This document shows positions 11,348 through 63,222 of a stretch of 64,000 nt of DNA, piece by piece. A program made the translations under genes and the position numbers. This DNA is from Chiridota heheva (taxonomy: Eukaryota; Echinodermata; Holothuroidea; Apodida; Chiridotidae): NCBI GenBank assembly GCA_020152595.1, contig JAIGNY010000163.1:56001-120000 (forward strand), read 5' to 3'. Every line of letters begins with the position of its first letter. The first letter of the stretch is position 1. The notes beneath the pieces were generated by a model. That model searched no databases. It saw only the letters and a list, made by a program, of their open reading frames with translations, and was not told where the DNA came from.

Positions 11348-11454
11348 TCCCTTACAGAAATGGCGAGCTCGCCGAGAACAATTATTGAACCTCTTTCATG
11401 GCTTGTCAAAATGTTAAAAAGAGCTCACAGCAAGCTCACCATTTCTGTAAGGGA
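11348..11454. mobile_element. Short AGCT-palindrome element with both termini
   Basis: The left end TCCCTTACAGAAAT (11348-11361) and the right end ATTTCTGTAAGGGA (11441-11454) are perfect inverted repeats. Similarity extends inward through TGG(C/T)GAGCT and outward through CTATCTT/AAGATAG. The interior is about 80 bp with no open frame. This is a minimal member of the family seen throughout the window, and it abuts the larger array at 11469. Confidence 0.7.
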
Positions 11455-11468
11455 AGGGAAAGATAGAC

Positions 11469-12373
11469 ACGTCAAATGGCGAGCTCGTCAAAATGGCGAG
11501 CTCGTCCAAATGGCGAGCTCGTCAAAAAACGGGCGAGCTCGTCAAAACGGGCGAGTTCGTCAAATGGCGAGCTAAAACCAAATGGCGAGCTCGTCAAAAG
11601 TGGCGAGCTCCTCGTCCAAAGTTAAAACGGCGAGCTCGTCAAATGGCAAGCTCGTCAAAACGGCGAAGCTCGTCAAAATGGCGAGCTCAAGCTAAAACGG
11701 CGAGCTCGTCAAAACGGGCGAAGCTCGTCAAAACGGGCGAGCTCGTCAAAAACTCGTAAAACGGGCGACTTCGTCAAAATGGCGAAGCTCGTCAAAAAAA
11801 GCGGCGGCTTCGTCAAAATGGCGAGCTCACAAAACGGTCAAAATGGAAACGGCGAGCTCGTCAAAATGGCGAAGCTCGTCAAAAGCTCGTCAAAACGGAA
11901 GCTCGTCAAAATGGCGTCAAAAACGGCGAGCTCGTCAAATGGCGAGCTTCGTCAAAACGGGCGAAGCTCGTCAAAATGGCGAGCTCGTCAAAAACGGCAA
12001 AAGCTTGTCAAAATGGCAAGCTAGTCAGAGTATCCAGGAAAAATGAGCTCGTCATGGAAATATGCACGTCAGGGAAATGCGCCCGCAAATTCGAAAGTAT
12101 AAATATTGTTTCTTCCAAATGGCAGAATGAATTGTATGCTTATTGGCAGGTGACTTTAATTATGGTGAGTCTAATTATTGACAAGCTCGTTTAAGTTTTG
12201 ACGAGCTTGGCACGAGCTTGTTTAAGTTTTGACGAGCTCATCTAAGTATTGACGAGCCCTTGACAAGCTATCTTAGTTTTGACAAGTTCGCCTGAGCTCA
12301 TCTAAGTTCTGACAAGCTCATCGCGAGCTCATTTCTTAATGAAGGGCTCATCGCGAGCTCATTTTCTGTAAGG
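11469..12373. mobile_element. GAGCTC-centred foldback array
   Basis: From 11469 to about 12045 there are some 30 imperfect copies of GAGCTCGTCAAAATGGC in one orientation. After a ~135-bp unique spacer, 12180-12370 carries the complementary motif (TTTTGACGAGCTC and TCTAAGT variants) in the opposite orientation. It ends at ATTTTCTGTAAGG (12361-12373), a variant of the family terminus. The two half-arrays can pair as a long foldback. The frames running through the array (Met-Ala-Ser-Ser-Lys-like repeats) are artefacts. No transposase is present, so it is probably non-autonomous. Confidence 0.7.
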
Positions 12374-12589
12374 TTGCCTCACCTTGCAGTCAGAGTAAGG
12401 AATCTATCTTATTATATATCCAGTATCTGTGGACAGCATGCATGTACAATGTGCACTGTAGCACTGCATGAAGAAGCTGTAAAACACATTAATTTGTACA
12501 TAGTGGCAATAGATAATAAAAAATGCATATTTATAATTAACTTCATTGGTTCTTATAGAAGACAGTCCAACAAAATTTACATATAATGA

Positions 12590-12740
12590 CATATGTCATA
12601 TATTTCATTATTTAGCATATGATTTCATTATATGCCATATTAATGCATATGGCATGTCTTATATGGCATATAATGTCATTATATGGCATATGTTATTATA
12701 TGGCATATAATGTCATATGATACATAATGCTATTATTAGA
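12590..12740. repeat. Short AT-rich tandem repeat (ATGGCATATAATGTCATT type)
   Basis: About seven imperfect units of 18-22 bp built from GGCATATAATGTCATTATAT. The unit resembles the short repeats at 480-650 and is itself partly palindromic. Confidence 0.55.
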
Positions 12741-13570
12741 CCTATAATGTTATTTATTATACAGACCTGCCAGCTAGTACGATTTTGCCGTATTTAATAC
12801 AGGAAAATGTTGAAAATACGATTGTACGTGTTTTGGCACCAGAATAGGTTTTTTTTTTTTTTTTTTTAAATATTTTTTAAATATTTTTATACATATATTT
12901 TTTTACTCATACTTTTTACGCTCGGTTGGCGTTCATGTCCTCTTAAAGATTTTTGCCGACTTAACTGATTCAGATTCAGATTCAGAATAAGATTATAACC
13001 ATTTGCGGCTGCCGCCAAAAAGTGTAGACTACAAGTTAATTATGCATAAGGCAACCTACCTGCAACAGAGTTCCAATCAAGTTTAAGTACTCCAGTTCTA
13101 TCAGACTGTTTAACTAGCAAGATCTATTGGCAAGCAGCAGGGATTCCATCCCATCAACGTTCATTAAAAAATGAAGCACTCCAGAAATGCAAAAAGGCAA
13201 CTGCCACGTACAATAAGAGAAACTGAAAGTACAGTGGTAATTTTTTTTTTAGTTACAGTAAACCTTTGTTTTGTACATTTCGTTTGAAGAGTACAGTTTT
13301 TTTTTATCAAAATCACAAATTTTGTTGTTTCAGAATACAGTTTGGTGATCCTAAAGGTTGGCAGGCCTGATTATATGACATGAATGTTATTAAATGCTAA
13401 ATAATTAATTAAATAATGACTGAAAGAAGTACTTCTACATTATCTCTTAAATAATAGAATAAAAAAGATTATGAAAATGCAAAAACTAATTATACCACAA
13501 AAAATTTAAGTAAAAAGTCTATGTATAGCACCTCATTATTAGCTTCACTATTCAAAGAATAGTACAGCTA
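12741..13570. other. Non-coding stretch with a poly(T) run
   Basis: A run of about 20 T lies at 12848-12867. Otherwise no gene is apparent. Confidence 0.4.
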
Positions 13571-15950: not shown

Positions 15951-16520
15951 GCTAGGCAAAAATAAAAATAATAATATGGCCTGAGAGGATTTCATCTTCC
16001 TGGTAGTCCCGGTTGGGGGTAAAATTGGAAAAATATTAACATAAAAAAAACAATTGGGAAAATTTGAAAATTTGTCAAATTTGTCAACAGATTTTCCAAA
16101 AATTGGCAAAATTTACTTGGCTTTAGTCCCCTCCTCCCCTACCTAATTTTGCTAGGCTAGGCAAAAATAAAAACAATGATATGGCCTGAGAGGATTTCAT
16201 CTTTTTGGTATTCTCGGTTGGGGGGTAAAATTAGGAAATTATTAACATAAAATTTAAACAATTGGTAAAAATTTAATTTTTGGTCAAATTTGTCAACAGA
16301 TTTCTGGAAAATTGACAACATTTTCTTCAAAATATAAAAAAAGGGGGGCTTTTGAACCTCCCACTTTATGTTAGGCAAAAATAAAAATGATAATATGGCC
16401 TGAGAGGATTTCAACTTCTTGGTATTCCCGGTTGGGAAGTAAAATTGGGAAATTGAAACAATAGGTAAATATTGTAATCGATCGATCGATCGATCAACAG
16501 ATTTCCCGAAAATTGTCAAA
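15951..16520. repeat. Three tandem units of ~205-213 bp
   Basis: Units start near 15953, 16157 and 16370, each with TAGGCAAAAATAAAAA, then ATATGGCCTGAGAGGATTTC, a GGTTGGG block and ATTTGTCAACAGATTT or a close variant. The third unit carries a short ATCGATCGATCGATCGATC run near 16478. The two minus-strand frames of 113 and 130 codons lie inside these units and have no domain, so I treat them as artefacts. Confidence 0.75.
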
Positions 16521-16721
16521 ATTTCCTTCACAATCGAAAAAATTGCCAACCAATTAACAAAATTTACTTAAAATTTCCAATAATAAAAGAAATTTCCCAA
16601 ATTGACCAATAGTTCTCTGAAATTTGTTTCTCTTGTGAATACATGTATGTTTTGGGTTCTTGCCTCCCCACCCCTATTGAGAAATGAATGTAAAATACCA
16701 AATTACTTTCCTACCTGTAAG

Positions 16722-17175
16722 AGGTGCAGTGGTTCAGTGGTTAGGAGTCGTGCTTGTATGTAAAAGGTATCAGGTTCGATTTCTGCTGCGAGCACTACAT
16801 TGTGTCCTTGAGCAAGGCAGCTTTACTCCATGCTTGGAAAATACAACAAAAGTCATGATCGGCAATCATTTATACAACTTAGATTTGCCATAGTATATTA
16901 TAATATTTTTACTTGCACAGTTTTTCTCGCTCACCAATGGTGAGCAGGCGAGAGTTATTTTCAACCCTGTTTTATTTACTCTACTTGCTTCAGTCCACTC
17001 AGCTGTGAAAAATGAGTACCATTGGAGAGTTAACCTGGGGAGTTAACCTGCATCTGGGGAAGTCATGTACTCTCATCCACTTGCACCATGGAAACCGGGG
17101 ATAACCAACTAATGAGCCTAATGACTCGGGATGGATTTAGCTTAGCTGCCTACCTGCTCATATTTTGAATTTTTT
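16722..17175 (+). mobile_element. tRNA-derived SINE, family A, copy 1 (split by an insertion)
   Basis: The head resembles a tRNA gene: box A-like TGGTTCAGTGG near 16729 and box B GGTTCGATTTC near 16773, the internal promoter of RNA polymerase III. Next comes TGTCCTTGAGCAAGGCAG, a block common in animal SINEs. After the insertion at 16829-16974, the body resumes with CAGTCCACTCAGCTGTGAAA and ends around CATGGAAACCGGGGATAACC and ACTAATGAGCCTAATGACTC. The later body blocks recur at 26.94-27.15 kb (minus) and 27.53-27.70 kb (plus). It encodes no protein and would depend on a LINE for movement. Confidence 0.72.
16829..16974. mobile_element. 146-bp insertion inside the SINE with 7-bp flanking duplication
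   Basis: TTTACTC flanks the segment on both sides (16822-16828 and 16975-16981), and the SINE body is otherwise continuous across it. The insert contains the palindrome GCTCACCAATGGTGAGC (16929-16945). It has no coding capacity. It may be a small MITE; its family is unknown. Confidence 0.5.
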
Positions 17176-20607: not shown

Positions 20608-20732
20608 TACATCTTGACGTTATTGTATTTTACCATTTACTAATAATTACAGAAATTTTTATTTTTCTAATTTACTGGGGTTTTTATATAACTTTTATGT
20701 AACTTGTACCTTACAGAAAAACTAGTATTTAA

Positions 20733-21265
20733 AATTTTTTTTTTTTTTTTGCAGCAAGCTAACACTAGCTTGCAGCAAGCTAACACTAAATTCTTCTGCT
20801 TGCACTACCTCTGTTAATTTGATTGACATCATTTGCTGATGATCAAAAGGGTAGATATGAGTTATTGTATAAGCATTAAGAAAGAGTATGAATATTTCCC
20901 TAACGTGCATTTATTCTTGTATGATATCCCTTACAGCTAACATGAAGTTTCTGCTAGCTAGCGCAAGCTAGCATGTAATTTTGTTAGCTTGCAAGCTAAC
21001 ATAAAAATTTGCTAGCATGTAATTTTGTTAGCAAGCTAAACATCAGCTAACATCATGCTAGCTTGCGCAAGCTAACATCAAATTTTGCTAGCTTGCACAA
21101 GCTAACATCAAATTTTTGCTAGCTTTGCAAGCTAACATCAAATTTTTGCTAGCTTGCGCAAGCTAACATCAAATGTTTTAGGTTGCGCTAGCTAACATCA
21201 AATATTTCTAGCTTGTGCAAGCTAACATCAAAAATTTTGTTAGCTTGTGCAAGCTAACACAATTT
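20733..21265. mobile_element. GCTAGCTTGCGCAAGC palindrome array
   Basis: A poly(T) run leads into two GCAGCAAGCTAACACTA units. TCCCTTACAG at 20927-20936 is a family terminus, and from 20950 to 21262 come about ten units of 31-35 bp made of the palindrome TTAGCTTGCGCAAGCTAA followed by CATCAAATTTTT. The right end (ACAATTTCTTTGAG) is only a weak match to the usual terminus. No coding frame. Confidence 0.65.
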
Positions 21266-21299
21266 CTTTGAGAGTTTATGCAAGTTATTACACAATTGC

Positions 21300-21443
21300 T
21301 TGCAAGCTTGTGTAAGCTAATATTTTGTACATGTTCCTAAACTAAATGTTACAAACTTAACATTAAACTTTTGCTTGTGTAAGCTAATATTTTCTACAAC
21401 ATGTTCCCAAAATAAATGTTACAAACTTAACATTAGACTTTTG
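21300..21443 (+). repeat. Two tandem ~70-bp units
   Basis: GCTTGTGTAAGCTAATATTT, then ATGTTCC, AATAAATGTTACAAACTTAA and CATTA(A/G)ACTTTTG, occur twice in succession (about 21308 and 21373). The unit begins with an AGCT-core motif, so it may be a by-product of the adjacent array. Confidence 0.7.
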
Positions 21444-21744
21444 TGAAAACTTGAGATTTTCAGTACTACAGTATGTCGGAACCTTAAGTGTGACTGAAAT
21501 ACTGTAGTGATGATAGCTAGGGGTAATTTTACTTAATATAAAGTGATCAACTTGAAAGTCTTGAAAAGTAAATTCAAACATACAGTAACTTAATTAATTT
21601 CTGTGTGTGATGAAACATCCCCCTTTCTGCATAAAGATAAATGTAAGAAGACATATTCTTGAGAAGAAAAAAAAAGTCAATGTCAATTTATTTTGCAATT
21701 TTCAAACTTACTTTTCATTGTGATTCTGATTGGTAAATAAGTAC

Positions 21745-21845
21745 ATAATAACCTTGTTGAAGAGAGAAAATAAATAAAAGTTTTTGAAAATTATTACAAA
21801 AATGCATCACTTTTCTTTTACATTTAAGAATGTCCCAAAGACATA
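21745..21845 (+). repeat. ~100-bp segment repeated at 26.49 kb (copy 1)
   Basis: Nearly identical to 26488-26588, from CCTTG(T/A)TGAAGAGAGAAAA through ATGCATCACTTTT to AATGTCCCAAAGACATAGC. In this copy the GAGCTC array begins directly after it; in the other copy a GAGCTC element lies directly before it. Confidence 0.85.
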
Positions 21846-21847
21846 GC

Positions 21848-22197
21848 CATGAGCTCGCCACGAGCTCGTCAACAATAAGACGAGCTCGTCAACAAAAACG
21901 AGCTCGTCAACTAAAAAGAGATCGCGAGCTTGTTAGATGGTTGATGAGCTCGCGACGAGCTCGTCAAAACATAGATGAGCTCGTCAACAACTGGACAAGC
22001 TTGTGACCAGCTCGTTGATAATCTGACGAGCTCGTAAAATATAGACGAGCTTGCCAAAAGCTTGTCAACAACTGGACAAGCTTGTGACGAGCTCGTCAAT
22101 AATCTGACGAACTCATTAAAAAATAGATGAGCTCGCCACAAGCTCGTCAACAATCTGACAAGCTCTTTGCAACCTCTATCAACAATTAGACAAACTT
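21848..22197. mobile_element. GAGCTCGTCAAC array
   Basis: About 15 imperfect units of CGAGCTCGTCAACAA(T/C)(A/T)(A/G)GA with CGCCACGAGCTC and AGCTTGTGACGAGCTCGT variants. It belongs to the same motif class as 11.5-12.4 kb. The outer ends lack a clear TCCCTTACAG terminus. The 106-codon minus-strand frame is a repeat artefact (leucine/valine/aspartate/glutamate/leucine-like). Confidence 0.65.
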
Positions 22198-24130
22198 TCC
22201 ATGTAAGAACACAAATTGAAGCCAGTCTCACATAAGAAATATGTAAGACACAAATTCAAGTGTAACTCCCATGAGAGAAATATTTAGAAATAAACACATT
22301 GTGGGAAATCTGTGGATAATTTTTCATCTTTAATATTTCCTTTCTTATTATTTCTACATTGATTTAGATGAGAAACCAAAGAGATATGACCATAAAATAA
22401 TTATAAATAAAATCAAATATCTGAAAGTTCATCAGTAAAACATATATCATTCAACCAGTTTAATAATAACTTGGTCAGATGTGTACTCAAAAGAAGCATG
22501 ATTGTCACAAATGCAAACTTGAGTGAGGGGTGCATTATACTAATCAATGTTTTAATTGTGCTAAACATTTTTGTTTATTGTGCAATATTCCTCAGTCTCC
22601 TCAAGCTCATTAATTTCTTTATGTTGACCAACACCTCAGTGGTGCTACAGTATCCCTTGATCAAATGACACACTCTTCCATATTCATCCTCTCTCCACAT
22701 GAACAAACTAAATACTGGATGTTATCCTTTCCCAAAAACCAAACATGTTCAATGATACTATCTCCCACAACTCCCCATGTCACCCTTACAACCCCCTGCC
22801 TCTGCCTCATGTTGATTCCTCTCCCTTTCATGACCAAATCCCTTGAAACTCATAAGTTCCAATATGCCATGCATTCAGCCCCATAATGTTGTATGTCTCA
22901 TCCCCAATGTTGCATTTAACTGAACTCAGCATGGCCAAAATCTTCCCTCTTTTAATCCATTCCATTTCTGTATTCACCCATGGAGCTGTAAACCACTTCT
23001 CTGTTACAAATTCACACAGGCTTGTGTACATAACCTTTATGTAATCTCCTTACAAGGAATCTGTGACAGTATTTAGAGATTCCTAATACTCAAGTTTTCT
23101 TACTTTTCTTTACTAAAAAAAAAAATTCTCTTTCCATCTCAATGCTCCATGGCTATACAAGCAACACTGTGTTTAAATGAAAGTTCACTGACATCAGATT
23201 TCTATCATGCGCACAAGTTGGAGGAAGTGTTATCCCTGTTAGCCAATGAAAACACAGGATGTTCTTTATGAAGATCAAACAGTTTGAATTTAAAACCAGA
23301 GAGACGCCATTTTAGGCATTTACTGTTCAAACTAGCAAATGTTATTAGCATGTCTACAGGAGTCAGGGTAGTGATTTCTGCTATAAATGTAAGTTCATTT
23401 TCTTTTCTTTTTCTATACAATCTATTATTTGTATGATAAACATGTTTTTAAAACAAACTTAGGATTTCCTCACTAATCTTAGTTAAATTTTGGAAGTATG
23501 TATGGCCTCTAATCAAACAGTAATTAGGCCAAAGAGCTTAGGCCAAGCTTTGTTGTGTAAATTTCAAAGAGTTATCTGAGATCATTAATGCAGAGAATGT
23601 AGACAAGAAGTTCAACTAAGTTAATTTTGAGATCAGAGAATTTGGAGCATAATGAAAGACTAGTTCAAAAGACCAGAAAAAGGCAATTGTATTTGCAGTC
23701 ATAATTGTAGAGAAAACTAATTTGTTTTAATGGAAGCTGGTATCTATTGCAGAGAAGATTAAGTTCCAGACAGTTAAAAAAGACATTAATATTACATTCA
23801 TGGCCTATTTGATAATGTTCAGTATATATGTTATTACTCAAATGGGGATATTTTTTTTGGGGGGGGGGTGAGGGGTGGGAGGGGCAGTATTATTGGTATT
23901 TGAGAGGGATATCAGTAAGATTGGGATTTAAAGGTTATCATTGAAATTTGAGGGGGCTGTCTATCCTCATGCCAAACCTGGTGCTTTCCCTAGGATGGAA
24001 TGGTAGAGGAATGGGTGAAAGATTAATATATCAGAGCATATTTAATAAGGTTTTCCAATCACTTGGTTGAAGTATTACAGTAGCTTACCATAATATTTCT
24101 ATATTTGATAAATTTGTTATTTTCCAACAG
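22198..24130. other. Long non-coding stretch with a G-rich tract
   Basis: No gene recognised. A T-run followed by G-runs lies at 23849-23886 and could form a G-quadruplex. Small frames near 22471-22886 show no domain. Confidence 0.4.
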
Positions 24131-24336
24131 ACCTTGTTGAATTGTTTTCAGAGTAACAGAAGAAACTCACCAGTTGGCAATTGCCCTGATCCCTTTTTAT
24201 GGCAGACTCAAATAAATGCACCTATTTTGAAGACCAACAGAACTCTCAGGACAAACATAACTGGCTTGACAAGATATAATCTCCAGCAAACCCAATTATT
24301 GTGGATAACAATGCAATTGACCATCAAGGTATGAAG
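24131..24336 (+). other. Exon-like interval between good splice signals (unproven)
   Basis: A TTATTTTCCAACAG acceptor-like site precedes 24131 and an AAG|GTAAGA donor-like site follows 24336. One frame starts at an ATG (24199) with MADSNKCTYFEDQQNSQ but stops at 24277. Another is open from 24131 across the interval but reaches a TGA at 24332. With no homology and no phase-matched partner exon (the acceptor at 25946 is not a clear match), this is only a candidate untranslated or pseudo-exon. Confidence 0.2.
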
Positions 24337-24632
24337 GTAAGAACTATTTTTTGGCACCAATGATATGGCAAAATAAGTGGTGCAAGAAAACTTGACTAAA
24401 TTGGATAAAATATTGCTTATTTCATAGTTTATTTGACAAGCTTTTTTGGAAATTAAAACAATAAATTCAGTGCATGGTTCAGTGCATAAGTCCATACATG
24501 CAAAGAACTTTAAAAGGGACAGATGCTAAAATTGTAAACAACAACATGGCAAAGTGTGTAGTAACTTGTAACTTGCCCATTTTATAATATATTTTTACCT
24601 GGTATAACTATATAAAAGTGTAACAAAATTGT

Positions 24633-25202
24633 ATAGGCCTATATTGGAGATAGGCCTATATTGGAGATAGGCCTATATTGGAGATAGGCCTATATTGGAG
24701 ATAGGCCTATATTGGAGATAGGCCTATATTGGAGATAGGCCTATATTGGAGATAGGCCTATATTGGAGATAGGCCTATATTGGAGATAGGCCTATATTGG
24801 AGATAGGCCTATATTGGAGATAGGCCTATATTGGAGATAGGCCTATATTGGAGATAGGCCTATATTGGAGATAGGCCTATATTGGAGATAGGCCTATATT
24901 GGAGATAGGCCTATATTGGAGATAGGCCTATATTGGAGATAGGCCTATATTGGAGATAGGCCTATATTGGAGATAGGCCTATATTTGGAGAGAGGCCTAT
25001 ATTGGAGATAGGCCTATATTGAGATAGGCCTATATTGGAGATAGGCCTATATTGGAGATAGGCCTATATTGAAGATAGGCCTATATTGGAGATAGGCCTA
25101 TATTGGAGATAGGCCTATATTGGAGATAGGCCTATATTGGAGATAGGCCTATATTGGAGATAGGCCTATATTGGAGATAGGCCTATATTGGAGATAGGCC
25201 TA
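24633..25202. repeat. 17-bp minisatellite, about 33 copies
   Basis: The unit ATAGGCCTATATTGGAG is repeated almost perfectly for 570 bp, with a handful of single-base indels or substitutions between about 24979 and 25072. Each unit contains the palindrome ATAGGCCTAT. The high identity implies recent expansion or ongoing homogenisation. Confidence 0.97.
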
Positions 25203-26412
25203 ACTTCATATTTTTGCTGATGTTTATCAACACTGATCTATCCATTGTAATTAGTAGCTCGTTTTCTTTATCTAATCATCACTTTAATTCAAATTAGGGG
25301 GTGGGGGGGGGGCAAACTCCATAAGAACAAAATCTTTTTATCAAAAGAAATATTCATTTTGATTCATATAATGTGTCAATGTTCAAAGCTTAGCAATTTA
25401 TCTCTTTTAGGCTCTCCCACTTCATGTAATTTCAATTTGTTCACTTGGCAAGTGGAAAAGTGTCAATTTTGTTCCCATTTGCTGGTCATGTATTGCTTAT
25501 CTTTGAGCAAACCTGCAGCGTTTGCTTACCTGGTTTAATCCACCTGGCTGAAGGGGGGAAAATACTGAAGAAATTAGAGAGGTCCTTAGATTGTGACAAT
25601 TTGTGCCAGAGAAGTCATGGGTCCCCAGCTGCAGGATTAATCATAGAAAAGCATTTGCTAAATGGCCTTTTTTGGCAGCAAGGGTCTTACCAGGATTTCT
25701 CTGAGAATGTAACTTGCCTCTTTGACAAGATAAATCTCACTGGTTTCACCCCTTTTGTTTTCAGTAAATTTTCCAGACAATAAAGTAATCCAGATGTAGA
25801 GGTGCTAGACCGGAGCTCTTAGGGACGATGCTCCCTCCGCATACCCCACTGGTGCTACCCCTGCCTAGCAAAGTCATGAACATGATTTCATTTTTGTAGG
25901 AACATAATCTGTTTATTTATATAAATATATTTTTTCATTCTTTCAGAATTTGTGCCGAGAGACAGGAAACAGCAGGAGCACCAATCTATGAAAGTGACGG
26001 ATTGCTTCCCATCAGAATGCTATTTTAGAAATTGACAGATGCTGCGCGAGGAGCAGTATACTTGATATATACAGTATACTTATATCTTGCTTTATATATA
26101 AGCCTTATACATACCTTAGAATATTTTTAATATTTGAAATTTATTTGAAATGTGTTTGTTATCTTCAGAAAATTGTGATATTTGGTATTCACTTTCACCC
26201 TTAAACACATCTTTCATTCCATCACCTTGTTCCAGACAGAACATTGTTATAGATTAGATAAAAGTATGTATCTTAAAGCGTTATACCAGCTTGCTGTCTT
26301 TTTGTTAGGTACAGTTTATTGCCAGGTGAATTTGATTGACCCAAAAAGTACAAGCAAAGGTTGCTGTTAACTGCTTTGTCACAAGAAACTAGCTTTTCAA
26401 GTTAAAAGATGA
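25203..26412. other. Mostly non-coding; one unexplained open frame
   Basis: The plus-strand frame 25427-25783 is open for about 118 codons without an ATG near its start. Its composition is protein-like (KKLERSLDCDNLCQRSHG) but I recognise no domain. A strong acceptor-like TTTTTCATTCTTTCAG ends at 25946, followed by two short open frames. Neither is enough to call a gene. A run of ten G lies near 25303-25312. Confidence 0.3.
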
Positions 26413-26485
26413 GAAACGAGCTCGCCGTGAGCTCGTCAGAGAGGTTCAATACGAGCTCGTGGCGAGCTCGCCATTTCTGTAAGGG
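26413..26485. mobile_element. Minimal GAGCTC element with one clear terminus
   Basis: CGAGCTCGCCGTGAGCTCGTC and CGAGCTCGTGGCGAGCTCGCC flank a ~15-bp centre, forming a near-palindrome. The right end ATTTCTGTAAGGGA (26472-26485) is the family terminus. The left terminus is lost or never present. Confidence 0.6.
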
Positions 26486-26487
26486 AT

Positions 26488-26588
26488 AATACCTTGATGA
26501 AGAGAGAAAAAAGTAAAAGTTTTTGAAAATTATTACAAAAATGCATCACTTTTTTTTACATTTAAGAATGTCCCAAAGACATAGCTTG
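26488..26588 (+). repeat. ~100-bp segment repeated at 21.75 kb (copy 2)
   Basis: Matches 21745-21845 almost throughout. The GAGCTC element ends immediately to its left. Confidence 0.85.
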
Positions 26589-26936
26589 TATGTGGAGTTG
26601 ATATACAAAGGTAAAACAAATTGACATTCCTCAGTTATGTGAAAAAAAGAACAACGAAATAAATCATACGATAAAGATTTATGCAAGAAAAATAAAAAAC
26701 AAACAGAAAGACTCAGCACTTAAATTTCAAGAAATAATATTTAATTCAAAAGTAATTACTGTAATCGGCATCTGAAAAATAATCAGTTATTGTACTAGGC
26801 AACTGATTCATCTGTGGGGCAATTCGGTGATGCATCATGCCACTATGTCCCTAGCTCCTAGAGAATTTGCCTTGTACGAGAATTGAAATTGTAGCTGCTA
26901 ATATACTGTAAGTCACTGCCAGTAATATTTAAAGGC
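26589..26936. other. Non-coding spacer
   Basis: AT-rich, with no gene or repeat copy recognised. Confidence 0.4.
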
Positions 26937-27155
26937 CCATGTGGCACAAGCGGATGAGAGTCAACAACGATGGTTGATCACTCCCCAGCTAAGCTGGAAG
27001 CTTAAAGTGGAACTGTCAAAGGCAGGATGGATAAAGGGCCTTACCTACCGTAAGGACACACCACAGCTGCCTCTGCCTGGAATAAAACCTGGAACCTCTT
27101 GCTTGCAAAATCAACTCCTTTACAGCAGTGCTAAACAATCCTACTTCACGTAGTG
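26937..27155 (-). mobile_element. SINE family A, copy 2 (minus strand, diverged)
   Basis: Read on the minus strand, it has a tRNA-like 3' half with AGGTTCCAGGTTTTATTCC near box B. Then comes TGTGTCCTTACGG, GTAAGGCCCTTTATCC, and near the end ACTCTCATCCGCTTGTGCCA, matching ACTCTCATCCACTTGCACCA in the copy at 17.07 kb. The 70-codon plus-strand frame here is a chance opening. Confidence 0.55.
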
Positions 27156-27526
27156 AAATAAAATTTATAAGCATGACTGAGCCAAAATACACAAAAATGG
27201 TGTATGTAGTAAATCTTTAAGTCTGCAAATAATACACAAAAACTTGTATATTAAACAAGTGCAAACAACTTCTACACAGATTAGATACAGTATGCTGTTA
27301 TTTGAACTTTTGTTGATAATCATATGACTCATTGAGTCATGAGCATCCTTGTTAATAAGGCTTGGACATTGCCTCCACATAATCCTAACATTTTGTCCTG
27401 ATCCTTATATGAATGTGACTTTTTTTTTGTTATTCTTTTGATCAATAAACATGTTTCTTTAATGATTGTTTCCCTTTTATTATTTTTTATTTGTCAATCA
27501 GGTAATAGATGTAGATTTATACCCTA
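27156..27526. other. Non-coding spacer
   Basis: No gene recognised. Confidence 0.4.
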
Positions 27527-27700
27527 TGAGGGGGAGTGTAGTGGCTAGAGTCAGGGTTCAAACGAGACATTCCAGGTTTCATTTTTGGCTGAACATCTGT
27601 ATTCTATTGCATCTGGACATGGCTCTCCTCTGCTTGTTTCACGGAAACCAGGGCTATCAGCTCATTAGTTTTATGGACTACTAAACTACCTACAAGCTAA
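27527..27700 (+). mobile_element. SINE family A, copy 3 (diverged)
   Basis: It starts with GTAGTGGCTAGAG and CAGGGTTCAAACGAGAC, which resemble degraded boxes A and B. It ends with CACGGAAACCAGGGCTATCA, CTCATTAG and ACTAAACTACCTAC, which match the end of copy 1. Confidence 0.45.
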
Positions 27701-28314
27701 ATTTCCAAGCTAGTAGTTGGGAAACTTTGCAAGCTAACAACTAGCTGATGCAAAGTTGCAAAATGTTACCTTGAAGCTAACAATTGCAAGCATGCAATTT
27801 GCAATCTAGCGAATAGCTTATGCAAAATGTTAGCTTGTTAGCTGCTAGCTAGCTAGCTAGAATAGCTTATGCAAAATGTTAGCTTGCGCTAGCTTAGCTT
27901 GCGCAAGCTTGCGCTAAGCTAGCTAGCTTGCGCTAGCTTGCGCTAAGGTAGTATTTGGAACAATTGCAACCTTGCAAGCTTGCAAGCTAACAGTCAGCTG
28001 CAAGCTTGCGGAATGTTAGCTAGCAAGCTATCTGCTAGCTTGCAAGATGTTAGCTAGCAAGCTAGCGCAAGGTTGCAAGATGTTAGCTAGCAAGCTAGCG
28101 CAAGGTTGCAAGATGTTAGCTAGCAAGCTAGCGCAAGGTTGCAAGATGTTAGCTAGCAAGCTAGCGCAAGGTTGCAAGATGTTAGCTAGCAAGCTAGCAC
28201 AAGGTTGCAATTGTTCCAAATACTACCTTGCGGCAAGCTAGCAGCAAGCTAGTTGCAAGCTTGCAAAAGTAGTGTGGTGCAAGCTTATTGTTAGCTAGTC
28301 TTTTCTGTAAGGGA
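27700..28314. mobile_element. GCTAGC/CAAGCTAGC array with a 33-bp core
   Basis: AGCT-core motifs run throughout. Within it, 28040-28205 holds five near-perfect 33-bp units containing GATGTTAGCTAGCAAGCTAG. Because 33 is a multiple of three, both strands are open (sense MLASKLAQGCK, antisense ILQPCASLLAN), an artefact rather than a gene. The right end TTTTCTGTAAGGGA (28301-28314) is the family terminus. No clear left terminus. Confidence 0.7.
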
Positions 28315-28606
28315 TACCAGTAGCTCAAGAATACGCTGAACATCAGAAACAGCTGTCTTAACCAAATTGAATTTAAAGAACATATGTCATTTCTTTTGAT
28401 TGACAAGTCTGCCACAGAGTTATGATTTGTTTCTAACAGTCTACTTGCTTATCATTATGATAGATGCGAGATTATATGATCATACTTTATAAAACCAATC
28501 TGTCAAGATAACCATTAATGACTGTACAGTGTTGGCACTAGTTGGTACAATAAGACCTTGATATTGTACATCATGCATATGCTCTAGAGCCTTAGAGAAA
28601 TTTTGC

Positions 28607-28934
28607 TTAGCTTGCGACAAACTAACAGATAGTTTTGCTAGCTTGTGCAAGCCAAGCATTGTTGGAAAATAGCTTTCTAGATTGCGCAAGCTATAATTAG
28701 CTTTGCAAGCTAGCATAAATTATTTGCTAGCTTTAAGCTTGCAAGCTTTGCCAGCTTGCAGATAGTTTTTGCTAGCTTGTCTAATTTGTTCCAAATTGCA
28801 GCTTGTGCAAGCTTGCAGCACGCTGCAAGCTTGTATCATGCTTGCATGTGCCAGCTTGCAGCAAGCCAGCTAAAAAATGTTAGCTTGTCACAAGCATGCT
28901 GCAAGCTTGCTGCAAGCTAATATTTCTGTTAGGG
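28607..28934. mobile_element. CAAGCTTGC array
   Basis: Mixed TTGCGACAAACTAAC, GCTAGCTTGTGCAAGC and GCAAGCTTGCTGCAAGC motifs end at ATTTCTGTTAGGG (28922-28934), a one-base variant of the family terminus. No coding frame. Confidence 0.6.
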
Positions 28935-32365: not shown

Positions 32366-33075
32366 TTAAGCTTGTCGTTAACTTGTCAAACTTGCATGCT
32401 GTTAGCTCGTATGAGCTCCCTAGCTGTTAGTTCTGTAGCTTATTTCAGCAGGTTGCAGTGAGCTTATGCCTGCTTGTTGTGGGCTTCTAAAGGCCTCAAA
32501 GAAGCTCACTCTTACATAAATATTAGCTTGCAGCAAGCTTGCAGCACACTTGTGACAAGCTAATATTTTTAGCTTGCGCAAACATGCTACAAGCTTGCGC
32601 AAGCATGCTGCAAGCTTGCAGCAAGCATGCTGAAAGATAATATTTGGACATTAGCTTGTGCAAGCCAGCAAAAGTATCTGCAAGCTAGCAAAACTTGTTG
32701 CAAATATATCATGCTAGCTTGCGCAAGCTAACAAATATTTTATGCTGGCTTGCACAAGCTAATGTTAGCTTGCACAAGCTAATGTTAGCTTGCGCAAGCT
32801 AGTATTTGTTCCAAATAATAGCTTTTGTTCCAAATACTAGCTTTTGTTCTAAATACTAGCTTTTGTTCTTGTTCTAAATACTAGCTTTTGTTCCAAATAC
32901 TAGCTTTTGTTCCAAATACTAGCTTTTGTTTTAAATACTAGCTTGCAGCACGCTTGCTGCAAGCTTGCAGCATACTTGCGCAAGCTTGTGGCATTCTTGT
33001 GCAAGCTAAAAATGTTAGCTTGTTGCAAGCGTGCTGCAAGCTAAAATTTGTGCAAAAGCGTTATTGTTTTTGCAA
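32366..33075. mobile_element. CAAGCTTGC/GCTAGCTTGCGCAAGC array
   Basis: AGCT-core palindromes extend across about 700 bp (for example AGCTTGCGCAAGCTAACAAA near 32715). A distinct 19-bp tandem block lies inside. Neither end shows a clean TCCCTTACAG terminus, so this may be a decayed or composite copy. Confidence 0.6.
32800..32944 (+). repeat. 19-bp tandem repeat TAGCTTTTGTTCCAAATAC
   Basis: About seven copies, with T/C variation in TTC(C/T)AAATAC and one short internal duplication (TTGTTCTTGTTC). It probably arose from the TATTTG(T/G)(T/A)(C/A)CAAA segment common in these arrays. Confidence 0.85.
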
Positions 33076-33530: not shown

Positions 33531-34690
33531 TACAGTAGCTCACGATTAACTTGAAGTACAGAACCCGATCCCATTTCTGTTAGGGTAATTAGCAGAGGGT
33601 GAAAATACTGGAGTGTACCTTTATCATTGACCATCAGGTGCAAGTTGGTCACTTGAAATAAAGTTTTTCCAAATGACTTCATTTTCCGGTCGAGCATCCC
33701 TTTAACTGTAAATATTATGTGATGGTACTTTAACCCTGTCACTTGACCAACCTGGCCAGGGGTATGCTTAGATGTTGGTGGCTTGGGGTTGGGGAAAGGG
33801 ATCTGGCAACTGTTTATTTTTAAAATTTCTAACTTGTGCTTACAATTTGAACTCTGTTGAAAACTGGATATGTAAGTTGAGTTTGTTTTAGAATTATGAC
33901 TTCATATGAAACTTCGCAAGCTGATGATGAGCTTAAAGAAAGTTAATGTAGATAGAAAATGTAATGTAAGCTCGAAAATAATTGTGTGTGCATGCATGTC
34001 TGTCTTTAATCCGACCTCAAATAACTTTTTCTGTTGCATCAACTGTTTGTTACAGTCGCTTATTTACCCACACAATCAAATCTTCCGATTGGTACCTGTT
34101 AATTGAATTGTCAAGATCAGAACAGTCTTTTAATCTGATCATACAGACGCGCCTGAGGAGCACCATGCATCCTGAACGCAAATGTTGAAATGCGCCTCCA
34201 GAAAGATCCTGACATATGTTGTGGTACTCTCCCCAATACCAAGTTGAAAACATTTTAAAAAGTGTGTCTCAATTAATTGCTAACCTGTAGACATGTATCT
34301 GCCGGACACATTAAATATGTATAATTATGAGTCATTGGAACATATTAGATAAATGTACTATTACTCAAGTTTTATATGAAAGGTATATATTGACAAAGAT
34401 CTGAGGTGTAGCTGTATTTTATGGGTGCCCTAGATTATAATCAAAAATTATCTTACATCGAACTGTACTAAATATCATCACCATTGACATGATGGTAAAT
34501 CTCAACTCAACTACCCAAAACTTTTTATCCCGATGAGTAACTTGTTTTAGAATATACTTGATCAAGTGATGAAGGTGTTTGTGTAATATCCACATCATAC
34601 AGAGTGTCAGATGAAGCTTTTGTGTTAAAATCCACTTAAACAGCCCTTACTTTTTGGACAGTGTTTTTCTAACACATAGTAGTATACTGA
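33531..34690. other. Non-coding stretch, nothing recognised
   Basis: It includes an isolated ATTTCTGTTAGGG at about 33573, similar to the AGCT-element terminus but with no adjacent array. No gene. Confidence 0.35.
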
Positions 34691-49262: not shown

Positions 49263-49345
49263 AGGAGATATGAAGTTTAGTATAATTTGAACTGAAGTTG
49301 TGAAGTTTTGGTGTCACATCCTCAAATTTCTCAGTCTAAAAATAA

Positions 49346-49416
49346 AGCTTGTCACAAGCTTGCTGCAAGCTTGTTACAAGTTTGCTGCAAACTAGGTTTT
49401 TTTGTATTGTAAGGGT
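49346..49416. mobile_element. Minimal CAAGCTTGC element
   Basis: Four AAGCTTGTCAC/AAGCTTGCTGC-type motifs end near TATTGTAAGGG (49405-49415), a worn family terminus. It lies inside the putative intron between 49115 and 49653. Confidence 0.5.
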
Positions 49417-58308: not shown

Positions 58309-58339
<31 letters not shown>

Positions 58340-59922
58340 GAAAGACAAGGTCTTCAGCTGTGTGCCTTCTGTAGTTTTCATACACAACAATTTTTGCATT
58401 CATCATCAAACTTTGAACAGTTCTAACTCAAAGAAAACTTGCTATTTTTAAAATTTAAAGATTATATTCAATTATTATTCTCAATAAGTAATTGCACAGT
58501 AGGTGACCATGCATCCACTAGTAGACAAACCAATACCGTGAAGATCACTTCTCAATGTGAAATTCCGCCAATCATTGAGTGGATGCATGTGATGAGATTT
58601 AATTGCAGGATATTAAACCAAAGAGCAAATTTGCCATTAAATTTGTTTGATCAAAGTCAAAGAACAGTATAGCTCCCTCCTAAATTCAAATATTGCTCAA
58701 TGCGTGCTGAATTATCTAGGTTCTCTGTGTATCGTCCAAAATGCTGAATTATCTAGAATTTCTATATCTGGAGAACAAAATTGGCATGGAACAAGACTTG
58801 ATTCATGGTATGAATGCTAAGATGTAATATGATCAATTTTGAATTCATTTAAAAACTGGACACCCCCTTCCTCCCTCCCATTGTTTTGTTGATATTTGTT
58901 GTTATTTGATGCTATCCTGTGCTATATATCCATTTTTTTGTTCAGAGCTGACAGTTCTGGCTTGAAATATGTGTAACAAATCAAGCTTTGTGATTAATTT
59001 TTTCATTAATTGGACTATATTGCATGATCACCTGATTGTATTAGTTTCATTATCAATCCACTAGAATTGTAGAAAATTCAGTTACCCATGCAAAGATTGA
59101 CTGACCTACACAAATCTAGTTTAGGTTTAACACACTGCTTCTCCTCACCTGCCCCACCCTCCTCCCCATTGATAAAAAAGGATAAATAAATGATGATGAT
59201 GATGATGATGGTGATGGTGGTGATGATGATGATGATGTTGCAGCATGCTTGCAGTGCGCTTGCAACAAGCTAACAATTTTTAGCTTGTGCAAATGTGCTG
59301 CAAGCTAGTATTTGGAACAAACTAGTTTGCGAGAGCTAGCAAAAACTATCTGCAAGCTTCCGCAAGCTAACAAATATTTTACGCTTACTTGAGCAAGCTA
59401 ATGCTAGCTTGCTCAAGCCAGTATTTGTTCCAAATACTAGCTTGCAGCATTCTAAAATTTCTGTAAGGGAATAAATCAATCAATCAGTCATCACTCTGCC
59501 AGCCGGTCGGTTGGTCAGTAAGTCAGTCAGTCAGTCAATCAATCAATTTGAATTATAAATGAGTAAAAGAATACCTATAGTGCATGTTAGTGTCATTTCT
59601 CTAGATTTAAAACTCTGTGGGGTTCAGAGAGCCTATTACTGTATGCTACCTTTAACTATTTGCTGGTTTAGCTATACCAAATAATAGACCTTCCCTGAAT
59701 GCTGACCTACAGTGCAGTACTGGGCATACAATAAGGCTCACTGACAAAAGTTTGAAGATCTATGATTTGTTAACACCTAAATATAATTCTTGCCTTGGGT
59801 TTCATTATTTATGTAACAGTAGATACGCCTATAGATTTTTATCAACCAAAATATGATTAACACCTTTTTGTCTCAAATATTTCAGAGATAATTTGCAGTG
59901 GGAATACATGAAGCCCTATTAA
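55831..59922 (+). CDS. Candidate two-exon C-terminus of an unrecognised host gene
   Basis: Exon 1 (55831-55893) lies between a strong acceptor, TTTTTTCTCACCCTAG, and a perfect GTGAGT donor. Read from its second base it gives QRFQEKEKKSTLTSRDRKKL, a basic, charged, helix-like segment, and leaves two bases. Exon 2 starts at 59886 after TCTCAAATATTTCAG; its first base completes the codon, giving valine, then DNLQWEYMKPY and TAA at 59920-59922. The splice signals and matching phase argue for a real 3' end with a ~4-kb intron. No upstream exon is assigned; the two bases left at 49114 would also fit, so a link to that exon is possible. I do not recognise the protein. Both exons are short and chance cannot be excluded. 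Confidence 0.33.
55894..59190. other. Long intron-like or intergenic stretch
   Basis: No further gene recognised. It contains G-rich tracts (56255-56278), a poly(A) run near 58312-58333, and scattered small frames without domains. Confidence 0.4.
59192..59240. repeat. GAT/GGT trinucleotide microsatellite
   Basis: About sixteen GAT or GGT units directly precede the AGCT array. Confidence 0.9.
59241..59470. mobile_element. CAAGCTTGC-type element, right terminus intact
   Basis: CAGCATGCTTGCAGTGCGC, GCTAGTATTTGGAACAAACT and CTTGAGCAAGCTAATGCTAG motifs precede TTTCTGTAAGGGA (59458-59470). The left terminus is replaced by the GAT microsatellite. Confidence 0.65.
59471..59547. repeat. TCAA/AGTC tetranucleotide repeat
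   Basis: Imperfect ATCA and GTCA units, for example AGTCAGTCAGTCAGTCAATC, immediately follow the element at 59241-59470. Confidence 0.8.
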
Positions 59923-60079
59923 AATAACATAAGAGGCTGGCAAAATTTAAAAAGAGTGATATTTAATATATGTCATCAAAAAATAAAATGACCAAACTAA
60001 TTAAGAGTTCATCTGAGGGAAAATTGGAAACTAATCACATAGAGATTTTCAGCAGCTAGGGAATCTTGACTCTATAGAA

Positions 60080-60547: not shown

Positions 60548-60689
60548 CTATAGAAAATAGCTTGACCGTCATTAAATCTCTCACATCATGGTGCTGATTG
60601 GCTTTTGATGATAGCAATTTACTACTATACTAGGATTTTGCCATTTGATTTCAGATCTGCATTTTGGAATGAACACTATATATGAAAAT

Positions 60690-61735
60690 GTTAAGAAATC
60701 AGTTTGCTTTAATACCTCGAAAATTCCTTTTTCAAATACTGTTAGATTTGTAGGTTTATTTCTTGACAAGGTTTTAACCTGGTAGGAACGTATTTATCAT
60801 ATTTCTCAAAAAGTATCTAAAGCTGTAGGTATTCTTAGAAAATTTAAAAAAATCATCTTGCCTTTTCACATGTACATATTAAAGGCAGTATATTGTGCTT
60901 ATCCTCCCATACCTTTCTTACTGTAATATTGCTTGGGGTGGAACTTACATCATGTCACAAGACTAAAAACCCTTTCTGACATCAAACCGCTTATCGCTTT
61001 CCCTTGTTCGTGACCGCTGGCAAACCTCATGGAACTTCCAAATTGATAAGAAACTCCACGTTGTCCAACCCACCATTCCGGTCAAACCCACTATCAGCAA
61101 CCTCTCTCGTATCGACAACGTTCGTATTACCCGTCTTAGAATAGGTTACACCCACCTCACTCACTCCCACCTTCTTATTGGCTCCCCCAACCCCTCTACA
61201 ACAATTGCCATTGCACCCTCACAGTCCATCACGTTCTTCTCGCTTGCCCCCTGTACAACCTTCCCAGAGCTTCCATTGCTCCCCACAACTCAATTGCTTA
61301 GTTCTTTCAGAAAAACCCTATGGATAAAATTATCTCCTTCCTTCATCATGCTTCCTTCTACAACCATATTAATTCTCGTGCACCCCCTCTCTCTACTTTG
61401 TTTTTTTCACGCATGCACCTCCTCTCTTGATCACAGCTTTCTGACATTTTGTTCTTGTATTTTTCTCAATCTCCCCCTGTTTCCTTTTCTTCCTACCTCT
61501 AGAATGATCTGACGTCTCAGGCACAATTTGACCCTCGTTGTCATGGTGCCGTTAAGCCTTCATCAAACAAACAAATCATCTTCTTGTACTACAGGATAAA
61601 GCTTTTCGTCTTATCTCAAATAAAGATTTCATTTCCCACGCCCCACTTCTTTATTTAAATCTTAAATGTTTGAATTTATTTGACTTGCATAGGTATCAGA
61701 TTAGTATTTTTTCATTAATTTAAACAATTATCCTC
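60690..61735 (+). pseudogene. CR1-like LINE fragment interrupted by an I-like LINE
   Basis: The left part (60690-60968) reads NTVRFVGLFLDKVLTW, then YHISQKVSKAVGILRKFKK, an AVYCAYPPIPFL region and IAWGGTYI, the thumb region after the reverse-transcriptase active site. The right part (61577-61735) resumes in the same order with LLVLQDKAFRLISNKDFISH and LYLNLKCLNLFDLHRYQISI. Stops and a frameshift are present and the catalytic domain is missing. The break is filled by the I/Nimb-like fragment, so this copy is the older insertion. Confidence 0.72.
60969..61576 (+). mobile_element. I/Nimb-like LINE 3' fragment nested in the CR1-like LINE (copy 3)
   Basis: It encodes the end of RNase H and the following knuckle: SLSLVRDRWQTSWNFQIDKK, RITRLRIGYTHLTHSHLL, then in a shifted frame NNCHCTLTVHHVLLACPLYN. 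It ends in GTTGTCATGGTGCCGTTAAG and CAAACAAACAAATC. The two frames show a frameshift near 61180. Its knuckle keeps C-x-C, H and C, unlike copy 1. The insertion lies inside the older CR1-like copy in the same orientation. Confidence 0.75.
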
Positions 61736-61862
61736 CTCAAAACTTTAAAAGTATGTTGTCTTACTGCAAAAATACTCATTATATAAAACTTAGATATCTT
61801 CTTTTTTTTTTGGAGGGTGGGGGTGGAGTGGGGGTGGGTGGGGGTGGGTGGGGGTGGGGGGG
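61736..61862. repeat. Spacer ending in a G-rich GGGTGGGGGT tract
   Basis: The tract 61812-61862 has about ten G-runs of three to seven bases and is a strong G-quadruplex candidate. The proline-rich minus frames are artefacts. Confidence 0.7.
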
Positions 61863-62778
61863 TTTCCTGTAACTTTTGCTTTAAACAATTTTTTGTATAA
61901 CTTTTCTTGCAGGGAAACACAATTATAATTTCTTATGAACTTCTCGTGCATTTCCCTTACTAACTTTTCATACCATTCTGAATGTATATAAATTCTGCAT
62001 TTCTCTATGTTTAACTCTATTGTCTCTGTAAATATGTATACATAAATGTAAATTGTAAATAATGAAAAGATGACTAATAAATGGTGATGAAATTGAAAGT
62101 GAGTTGAAAATTGATACTCAAGAGTTAAAATAGAGAAAATATATTGTAACTTCATTTGTTATGAAAGAATTTGCAGATGGATTTTACTGACAGTCTGGTA
62201 CCCTCTGCTGATCGGGGGATGTGTAATTCTTTCTCTCCATGGGAGATGTCCCATTAGGGGCTTGGACCAGGACAAACCTTTTGACAGGTTTTAAAATGTA
62301 AAGATTTTGCCTTAATTTACTCTCTTGTATGCTCACATCCTTACCCCAATGGAAATGTCAGAGTTGTTAATTTGCTAAACAACCTTCAAATATATAAAAA
62401 CTCTTAATCAAGTATATAATCCTTTGGGATACATGCTTACTTCTACAGCTATTCAAATATTCATAGTTATCTTCGAGTCATTCAATTTCCAATTAAAGTT
62501 TTCCGGAAATCAATTCCCTCTGAAAGTGTAAGAAACATTTTATAGACAATAATACCATTTAAAGAAAAAAAGGCTTTGCATTATTAAGAAAGTTTGTTTA
62601 ATCATTTAATATGTTTGCCATCTGTTGTAAAAAGCTTTGTACATGGATTGATTTTTGTTACCTATAGTTTACAAACACAAAGGTACAAGCAGGTTTTTGT
62701 ACTTTTAATTTCAAAATATTGACTTTTCATCTGCAAGTGTAAAAGATCTCAATAAAGACCATGATTTTGTGGTTGGGC
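61863..62778. other. Non-coding stretch
   Basis: No gene recognised. Confidence 0.4.
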
Positions 62779-63222
62779 ATCCCTTACAGAAATATTAGCT
62801 TGCAGCAAGCTTGCAGCAAGCTTGATTTTGTGGTTGCTTGCAGCAAGCTTGGCAATCCATGCTTGCAGCAACAGCTTGCAACAAGTATTAGCTTGCATCA
62901 AGCTTGCAGCAGCTTGCAGCACGCTTGCAGCACGCTTGCAGCACGCTTGCGACAGGCTAATATTTTGAGCTTGCGTGAGCATGCTGCAAGCCTGGTGCAA
63001 GCTAGTATTTGGAACAAATTAGCTTTTGCAAGCTAGCAAAAACTATCTGCAGGCTTGCACAAGCTAGCAAAAATGGTTTGCAATCTTGCACAAGCTAACA
63101 AATATTTCATGCTCGTTTGTGCAAGCTAATGTTAGCTTGCAGCAAGCTTGCAGGATGCTTGCACAAGCTAAAAATTGGAGCTTGTTGCAAGCATGTTGCA
63201 AGCTAAAATTTCTGTAAGGGAT
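62779..63222. mobile_element. Complete AGCT-palindrome element (reference copy)
   Basis: The left end ATCCCTTACAGAAAT and right end ATTTCTGTAAGGGAT are perfect inverted repeats. They continue inward through (A/T)TTAGCTTGCA, so about 25 of the terminal 27 bases match. The 444-bp interior consists of CAAGCTTGC, GCAGCACGCTT and GCTAGCAAAAA motifs, plus the TATTTGGAACAAA segment found in other copies. No open frame of transposase type. The flanks C/G extend the symmetry (CATCCC/GGGATG) and no unambiguous target duplication is visible. Confidence 0.8.

What the first reader, a model, noticed from the sequence alone, without database searches (positions are those of the whole stretch)
11348..63222. 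A family of elements with shared TCCCTTACAGAAAT ends and interchangeable AGCT-core palindrome arrays
At least nine loci (11.35, 11.5-12.4, 20.9, 21.85, 26.4, 27.7-28.3, 28.6, 49.35, 59.2, 62.8 kb, plus 32.4 kb without ends) consist of AGCT-centred palindromes. Seven keep at least one terminus TCCCTTACAGAAAT / ATTTCTGTAAGGGA or a one-base variant. The interior motif differs by copy (CGAGCTCG, CAAGCTTG, GCTAGC, TTGCGCAAG) while the terminus is constant. That suggests one transposition machinery tolerating, or selecting for, fast-evolving subterminal arrays. I do not recognise the superfamily and no transposase is in the window.
Basis: partly seen in the sequence, partly recalled or inferred. Interest (0 to 1): 0.85.

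Follow-up and report, generated by a model that had tools for sequence, protein, structure and literature searches.

The report
Animal CACTA-like transposons with palindrome arrays
The repeats are defective copies of cut-and-paste transposons related to plant CACTA elements, and larger relatives in the same genome carry a transposase gene and a second gene with a domain of a kind known to bind short palindromes, which may explain why the elements keep the same ends but differ in their palindrome arrays.

Summary
The observation largely holds. The end is CCCTTACAGAAAT (the T before it is flank), about 20-fold over control genome-wide, with 2-bp target duplications in 15 of 23 pairs (re-paired mean 5.1). 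The missing machinery lies elsewhere in the genome. A long relative on contig C2971 carries a tnp2-type (EnSpm/CACTA) transposase and, divergently, a BEN-domain gene; the window copy is its internal-deletion derivative. C354 has the same two genes with AGCTC arrays; C571 and C2584 have the transposase and the first exons of the second gene. A more distant lineage (C1044/C265) has another end and a CCAAATGG/CCAATTGG array. BEN domains bind short palindromes, so I propose that this protein binds the element's own arrays, as TNPA does in plant Spm, and that arrays change with it. Superfamily: well supported. BEN-array binding: inferred. No transposase-bearing copy was found for types A and C.

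The parts
20708..28313 (+). 7.6-kb composite: outer non-autonomous element (type D, GCTAGCTTGCGCAAGC arrays) with a type B element nested in it; flanks GT and AT do not match
   Evidence: left and right parts match the transposase-bearing copy C2971 at 81-88%; 40 scored long copies genome-wide, the window's own included, 30 of 40 with the nested end at 708-726 bp
20708..20720 (+). left 13-bp end of the outer element, first base changed (ACCTTACAGAAAA)
   Evidence: the C2971 copy has CCCTTACAGAAAA
20931..21262 (.). left subterminal palindrome array of the outer element
   Evidence: 10 inverted half-site pairs vs 1.7 in shuffles, 0 of 300 reach it
21851..26485 (+). nested type B element (AGCTC arrays), non-coding interior, left 13-bp end lost
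   Evidence: 89-90% identical to the free B copy in L027 (two long blocks); no ORF over 117 aa
21851..22170 (.). left GACGAGCTCGTC array of the nested B element
   Evidence: 6 vs 0.47, 0 of 300 shuffles
26473..26485 (-). right end of the nested B element (ATTTCTGTAAGGG) next to GGCGAGCTCGCC
   Evidence: 89 exact matches to this extended end genome-wide, control 0
27690..28313 (.). right palindrome array and 13-bp end (28301-28313) of the outer element
   Evidence: 22 vs 4.1, 0 of 300 shuffles
27267..27279 (.). deletion junction: left of it matches C2971 1287-1477, right of it C2971 16416-17037; the two matches overlap by 13 bp
11349..12373 (-). type B element, 1.02 kb, shorter relative of L021/L025, TT on both sides
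   Evidence: (by eye)
28589..28934 (.). type A element, diverged ends, no matching flanking duplication
   Evidence: array 11 vs 2.3, 0 of 300
32509..33060 (.). type A array with degenerate left end; right boundary uncertain (array ends near 33060, a possible right end lies at 33573-33585)
49345..49415 (.). right-end fragment of an array element (TTTTTGTATTGTAAGGG)
59240..59469 (.). type A right-end fragment, left end missing
   Evidence: array not enriched for inverted half-sites
62781..63220 (.). complete type A element with AT duplication on both sides

Best explanation
The loci are non-autonomous and decayed copies of EnSpm/CACTA-like cut-and-paste transposons. Shown: constant 13-bp inverted ends, a 2-bp target duplication, subterminal arrays, and in the same genome larger relatives with a tnp2-type transposase whose 3' side runs into the same end plus array (types B and D), and a divergent second gene with a BEN domain in two of them. 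Shown: the outer window element 20708-28313 keeps both flanks of such a relative (C2971) and lacks the 15 kb with both genes; it holds a second family member, and the nested unit is repeated in the genome. Inferred: the transposase acts in trans on the 13-bp ends, and the BEN protein binds the palindromes in the arrays as TNPA binds subterminal repeats in Spm, so that array type follows the specificity of the BEN protein while the ends stay constant.
For: Ends and duplication: 567 vs 25 control hits; 15 of 23 pairs with a 2-bp duplication; 2000 re-pairings gave a mean of 5.1 and at most 12; no 3-bp match. Transposase: PF02992 over its cut-off at C354, C1044 and C265 and in C2971; D, C(2)C, H(3)H and E motifs in order in C2971 and C1044. 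End plus array to transposase: of four fetched loci of this transposase group, C2971, C2584 and C354 have a recognisable end plus array on the transposase's 3' side and C571 has the array without the 13-bp end. Deletion derivative. Second gene: BEN exon C354-C2971 40%, E 4e-17 to 7e-17; first exon at C354, C571, C2584, C2971; coiled-coil exon shared by C354, C571, C2584. BEN in Pfam over cut-off in C354 and in C2971 after joining two exons; NAC1 BEN structures E 1.5e-7. Of 9 BEN-exon places genome-wide, 4 lie within 12 kb of a listed transposase, all four divergent; 2 of the 7 not already in hand, chance 7e-6 if places were random (the 12-kb limit was set after seeing them). Plant precedent for TNPA-like proteins with unrelated subterminal motifs: PMC2613891, passages. 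BEN domains binding CCAATTGG and ACATGT palindromes: PMC6317261 and PMC7764960, passages.
Against: The ends begin CCC, not CACTA/CA. No copy was found with two perfect ends, a matching duplication and both genes: the probable C2971 right end has 2 mismatches and its flanks do not match; C354 has a one-mismatch end on one side only; C571 lacks the end. In the C571 fragment PF02992 scores 27.0, under the cut-off of 28.6, and PF06869 scores higher there and in C354. No transposase-bearing copy with type A or C arrays was found, and nearly all of the 23 pairs are type A. 8 of 23 pairs lack the duplication; so do the long copies L027, C2971 and the window composite. Several arrays are not enriched for inverted half-sites. 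The C2971 coiled-coil exon did not match the others. BEN exons were not seen at C571 and C2584. 5 of 9 BEN places have no listed transposase nearby; the Pfam BEN search found two places, neither on a contig of a listed transposase. The match to Insv (4ix7, E 0.086) ranks below two unrelated chains. Nothing shows BEN binding to any array.
Confidence: 0.84

Rival explanations
1. The arrays with CCCTTACAG ends are miniature elements of another superfamily (for instance ISL2EU) that happen to lie beside EnSpm genes.
For: 2-bp duplications are also reported for ISL2EU (PMC4482050, passages); the ends start with CCC rather than CA; at C2971 hAT-like repeats lie between end and transposase.
Against: ISL2EU duplications are AT in an A|AT|T context; here AC, TG, AA and TA occur too. 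Three transposases of one group each have end plus array on the same (3') side, and the outer window element matches both flanks of the C2971 two-gene unit, 15 kb apart, across one junction.
Confidence: 0.08
2. The palindromes are not protein sites: they form hairpins or cruciforms used in replication or repair, so the array is a by-product of fold-back amplification.
For: Tandem, fast-changing repeats; an inverted copy of an end with its flank at 11348-11454; tandem amplification of an end plus array at L036.
Against: Arrays sit next to the ends of transposase-bearing copies with a lineage-specific motif, as TNPA sites do in plant CACTA elements.
Confidence: 0.25
3. Ordinary satellites with fortuitous shared edges.
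For: Some loci expand by tandem repetition (L036; C1489).
Against: Dispersed copies with discrete ends and 2-bp duplications and 40 scored copies of the composite's right part at separate places.
Confidence: 0.02
4. The BEN gene is a host gene that lies near these transposons by chance.
For: BEN domains are found in host proteins such as Insv and NAC1; the two BEN places are not near listed transposases, and 5 of 9 places are not either.
Against: Divergent layout at C2971 and C354 with homologous first and BEN exons, first exon at C571 and C2584 too, and BEN exon beside transposases, divergent, at C2676 and C219.
Confidence: 0.08

Closest known systems
Plant Spm/En and Tgmt* CACTA elements
   Same: tnp2 transposase, about 13-bp inverted ends, subterminal repeat arrays that differ between families, short duplication, deletion derivatives, a second DNA-binding function (PMC2613891, passages)
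   Different: Ends CCCTTACAG instead of CACTA; 2-bp duplication where Tgmt* has 3; second protein is a separate divergent BEN-domain gene; many arrays palindromic
CMC/CMCT clade (EnSpm, Mirage, Chapaev, Transib)
   Same: D, C(2)C, H(3-4)H, E order; 2-5 bp duplications (PMC12730594, passages)
   Different: Termini in most of that clade are CA..TG
Insensitive (Insv) and NAC1 BEN-domain proteins
   Same: BEN domain by sequence, best to NAC1; Insv also has a coiled coil and binds CCAATTGG, a motif that occurs in the C1044 array
   Different: Host regulators, not transposon genes; no binding data for the element protein
ISL2EU (PHIS superfamily)
   Same: 2-bp duplications
   Different: AT only, in A|AT|T context; DDE/HTH/THAP transposase and a YqaJ gene (PMC4482050, passages)

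Membership tests
EnSpm/CACTA (CMC clade) | tnp2-type transposase (PF02992) | tested here: met
   C2971 36.7 bits and C354 34.7 bits, cut-off 28.6; C571 fragment 27.0, under it
EnSpm/CACTA (CMC clade) | C(2)C and H(3-4)H between second D and E | tested here: met
   C2971 and C1044 in full; C354, C571, C2584 only in part because single open frames were read
EnSpm/CACTA (CMC clade) | 2-3 bp target duplication | tested here: met
   15 of 23 pairs at 2 bp, nearly all type A; C copy L038 AA; B copy 11349-12373 TT; not matching at L027, C2971 and the window composite
EnSpm/CACTA (CMC clade) | subterminal repeat arrays | tested here: met
CACTA in the strict sense | termini CACTA or CA..TG | tested here: not met
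   termini are CCCTTACAG..CTGTAAGGG; it is filed by transposase, not by the CACTA end
CACTA, TNPA-type accessory protein | element-encoded protein that binds the arrays | not testable with these tools
   BEN gene present; binding not shown
ISL2EU | AT duplication in A|AT|T | tested here: not met
   AC, TG, AA, TA also seen
ISL2EU | YqaJ gene and its own transposase type | not tested
   not searched for

The most novel reading that the evidence does not exclude
This genome, probably an animal's, holds EnSpm elements that carry their own BEN-domain protein as a TNPA analogue; each lineage's BEN protein reads a different palindrome (GCTAGCTTGCGCAAGC, GACGAGCTCGTC, CCAAATGG/CCAATTGG), so subterminal arrays are swapped or rebuilt as BEN specificity changes while the transposase-bound end changes much more slowly. 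The extreme AGCT palindrome arrays are then a fossil record of BEN DNA-recognition codes.
Probability: 0.45. Interest if true: 0.8.

Novelty: new variant of a known kind. Interest (0 to 1): 0.62.

Why it matters
It identifies the transposase behind the palindrome arrays, explains the window copy as a nested deletion derivative, and suggests how subterminal arrays of CACTA elements can change quickly under constant ends. A BEN domain as the array-binding protein would link a family of animal chromatin regulators to transposons and offer natural protein-DNA pairs for reading BEN specificity.

Tried and rejected
Simple satellites (rejected: dispersed, discrete, duplicated target). ISL2EU/PHIS (duplication sequences do not fit). 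The 841-aa transposase of C1044 as owner of the CCCTTACAG end: rejected, its boundary shared with C265 (95% over 3.9 kb) starts CCCAAGAGAAAA with another array. C256 (817 aa, zinc fingers): no match to CCCTTACAGAAA with at most 2 mismatches in the 10 kb fetched, and two 2-mismatch matches to its reverse complement, without an array. CGTGTACAC repeats at C2971 were first taken for that element's array; they belong to separate inverted repeats starting TAGAGCTGTGA. A BEN exon at C2262 lies near a B end but on its outer side, so not counted as linked; C3511 (BEN exon 3.2 kb inside a B end, right orientation) is suggestive and also not counted. The Pfam BEN search of the genome gave two places only, on no contig with a listed transposase. 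Rows dropped: one search used the window and L007-L036; L001-L006 were left out because L009, L010 and L028 cover the same places; pairs needed both ends with at most 1 mismatch and 60-1500 bp between, so long copies were excluded (by eye: L038 AA/AA match; L027 CT/AG, C2971 TA/AG, window composite GT/AT do not). Only the first 100 of 567 places were listed, so the pair sample is not random, and the eleven exact pairs were forced by the pattern to have T before and A after, which favours AT.
Full report
Setting. The species was not identified; animal origin is my inference from genome size and from the BEN gene.

The end. TCCCTTACAGAAAT with up to 2 mismatches occurs 10 times in the window against 0.72 expected and, exactly, 275+292 times in the genome against 14+11 for the reversed control. 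Listing contexts shows that the first T is not part of the element. In 23 distinct pairs with at most one mismatch per end, 15 have the same two bases on either side (AT most often; also AC, TG, AA, TA); 2000 re-pairings gave a mean of 5.1 and at most 12. No pair has a 3-bp match, 4 have a 1-bp and 2 a 4-bp one. At offsets 1 to 4 the 2-bp count falls to 3, 2, 1, 1. The pairs are nearly all type A and were partly selected for T..A flanks, so the AT share is inflated.

Array types that share the end. Type A has TTAGCTTGC/GCAAGCTAA and is 150-837 bp in the clear pairs (215-565 bp). Type B has GGCGAGCTCGCC next to one end; this extended end has 89 exact hits, control 0. Type C has CCCATATATGGG; 50 hits, 13 of them one tandem array, control 0; one 5.58-kb copy (L038 129-5706) is flanked by AA on both sides and holds type A sequence with an end at 4932. 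Type D has GCTAGCTTGCGCAAGCTAACATCAA.

What the window holds. Window 21851-26485 is a type B element 89-90% identical, in two blocks, to a free copy in L027, without its left 13-bp end. It lies inside a type D element, 20708-28313. A search with window 27200-28320 scored 40 of 619 candidates, and these are 40 long copies at 87-97%, the window's own at 100% (a lower bound). 30 of the 40 carry the exact B end at 708-726 bp, so the nested composite spread as a unit. Window 11349-12373 is a shorter B element related by eye to L021 and L025. Complete or fragmentary type A elements are at 28589, 32509, 49345, 59240 and 62781.

The transposase. PF02992 (tnp2, CACTA) gave three places over the cut-off in the genome (C354, C1044, C265) and none in 14 control genomes; tblastn-type searches gave 56 matches with the C1044 protein and 61 with the C2971 protein. 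I fetched seven transposase loci in part. C2971: an 827-aa open frame, minus strand, PF02992 36.7 bits; 3.4 kb beyond its 3' side is CCCTTACAGAAAA followed by a GCTAGCTTGCGCAAGC array. C2584: the same end with a GACGAGCTCGTC array, again on the 3' side. C571: 96-97% identical to C2584 over about 8.4 kb, array present, 13-bp end absent. C354: AGCTC array and TTTCTATAAGGG (one mismatch), again on the 3' side. C1044 and C265 (of C265 only the 3' flank): the two copies start to match at CCCAAGAGAAAA, next to a CCAAATGG/CCAATTGG array. C256: another lineage, no such end plus array in 10 kb. Transposase identity: C2971 to the others of the CCCTTACAG group 54-59%, C354 to C571 and C2584 71%, C571-C2584 95%, C1044 to all of these 31-37%.

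The window element as a deletion derivative. Window 20935-21783 matches C2971 462-1284 (81%), 27081-27279 matches 1287-1477 (88%), and 27267-27922 matches 16416-17037 (88%). So the window copy keeps both sides of the C2971 unit and lacks the 15 kb between 1477 and 16416 that holds both genes. Whether the deletion came before or after the B insertion is not shown. The probable right end of C2971 is at 19468 of the joined contig (two mismatches; about 1.9 kb of other sequence intervenes; flanks do not match).

The second gene. At C2971 and C354 a gene divergent from the transposase has a homologous first exon and a homologous BEN exon; the first exon is also at C571 and C2584. A coiled-coil exon is shared by C354, C571 and C2584; C2971 has an exon with weak coiled-coil-type Pfam matches in the same place that did not match the others. 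BEN exons were not seen at C571 and C2584, whose contigs end nearby. The C354 exon is PF10523 at 25.7 bits (cut-off 23.2); the C2971 exon alone scores 14.2, with the next exon joined 28.9. In the PDB it matches NAC1 BEN (E 1.5e-7); Insv 4ix7 is at E 0.086, below two unrelated chains. The C1044 locus has a similar-looking first exon by eye only. A genome search with the C2971 BEN exon gave 9 places, itself included: C2971, C354, C2676 and C219 lie within 12 kb of a listed transposase, all four divergent; 5 do not. For the 7 places not already in hand the chance of 2 or more is 7e-6 under random placement, with the 12-kb limit set afterwards. A Pfam BEN search found two other places, on no contig with a listed transposase, so BEN genes outside these elements may exist too.

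Mechanism. In plant Spm, TNPA binds subterminal repeats and is needed with the transposase, and unrelated TNPA-like proteins are thought to serve different motifs (PMC2613891, passages). Insv BEN binds CCAATTGG as a dimer and Insv has a coiled coil (PMC6317261, passages); NAC1 BEN selects ACATGT (PMC7764960, passages). CCAATTGG itself occurs in the C1044 array. I infer that the element's BEN protein binds its palindromes. Palindromy: inverted half-sites (arm at least 6, spacer 0-3) exceed all 300 shuffles in 7 of 10 window arrays and in C2971, C2584 and C354; C1044 is weaker (11 of 300), the two type C ends are not enriched (259 and 46 of 300), and one of five control stretches also scored high (1 of 300). 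Perfect palindromes alone give a mixed picture: 12 or more bases long they are in excess in D-right, B-left, 32.5 kb, C2971, C2584 and C354, borderline in D-left, and not in excess at 62781, C1044 or type C.

Novelty. No held paper has BEN domain with transposon and EnSpm; one has BEN domain with DNA transposon and transposase, on lateral transfer in Lepidoptera (listing only); a search of EnSpm, BEN, BEND, CACTA, animal gave two plant papers (listing only). Repbase was not available, so the families themselves may be catalogued there.

Noticed in passing
window 21745-21847 and 26486-26585: About 100 bp to the right of the nested B element are repeated directly to its left, and B's left 13-bp end is missing there: not a simple 2-bp duplication.
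   Followed up: partly
window 11340-11460: An inner exact end at 11441 is an inverted copy of the outer end at 11348, including flanking CTATCTT, as after hairpin or fold-back repair.
   Followed up: partly
window 62755-62850: The flank GATTTTGTGGTTG left of the type A element recurs inside its array.
   Followed up: no
L036 (C319:589232-591525): Right end plus array amplified in tandem, 16 near-copies of the end about 100-230 bp apart, with G-rich spacers.
   Followed up: no
L039 1590-3402 and joined contig 9838-10869: Inverted repeats starting TAGAGCTGTGACCGTTTA with GCGTGTACACGC palindromes, hAT-like by look (recalled), next to the transposase.
   Followed up: partly
L017 6078: A CCCTTACAGAAAT end followed by about 50 bases without any array motif: perhaps a further family.
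   Followed up: no
L025 about 3990-4250: A tRNA-like, SINE-looking insert (by eye) inside a type B element.
   Followed up: no
window 24633-25202: 17-bp tandem repeat (ATAGGCCTATATTGGAG, 33.5 copies, 98%) inside the nested B element; the L027 copy has no matching block there.
   Followed up: no
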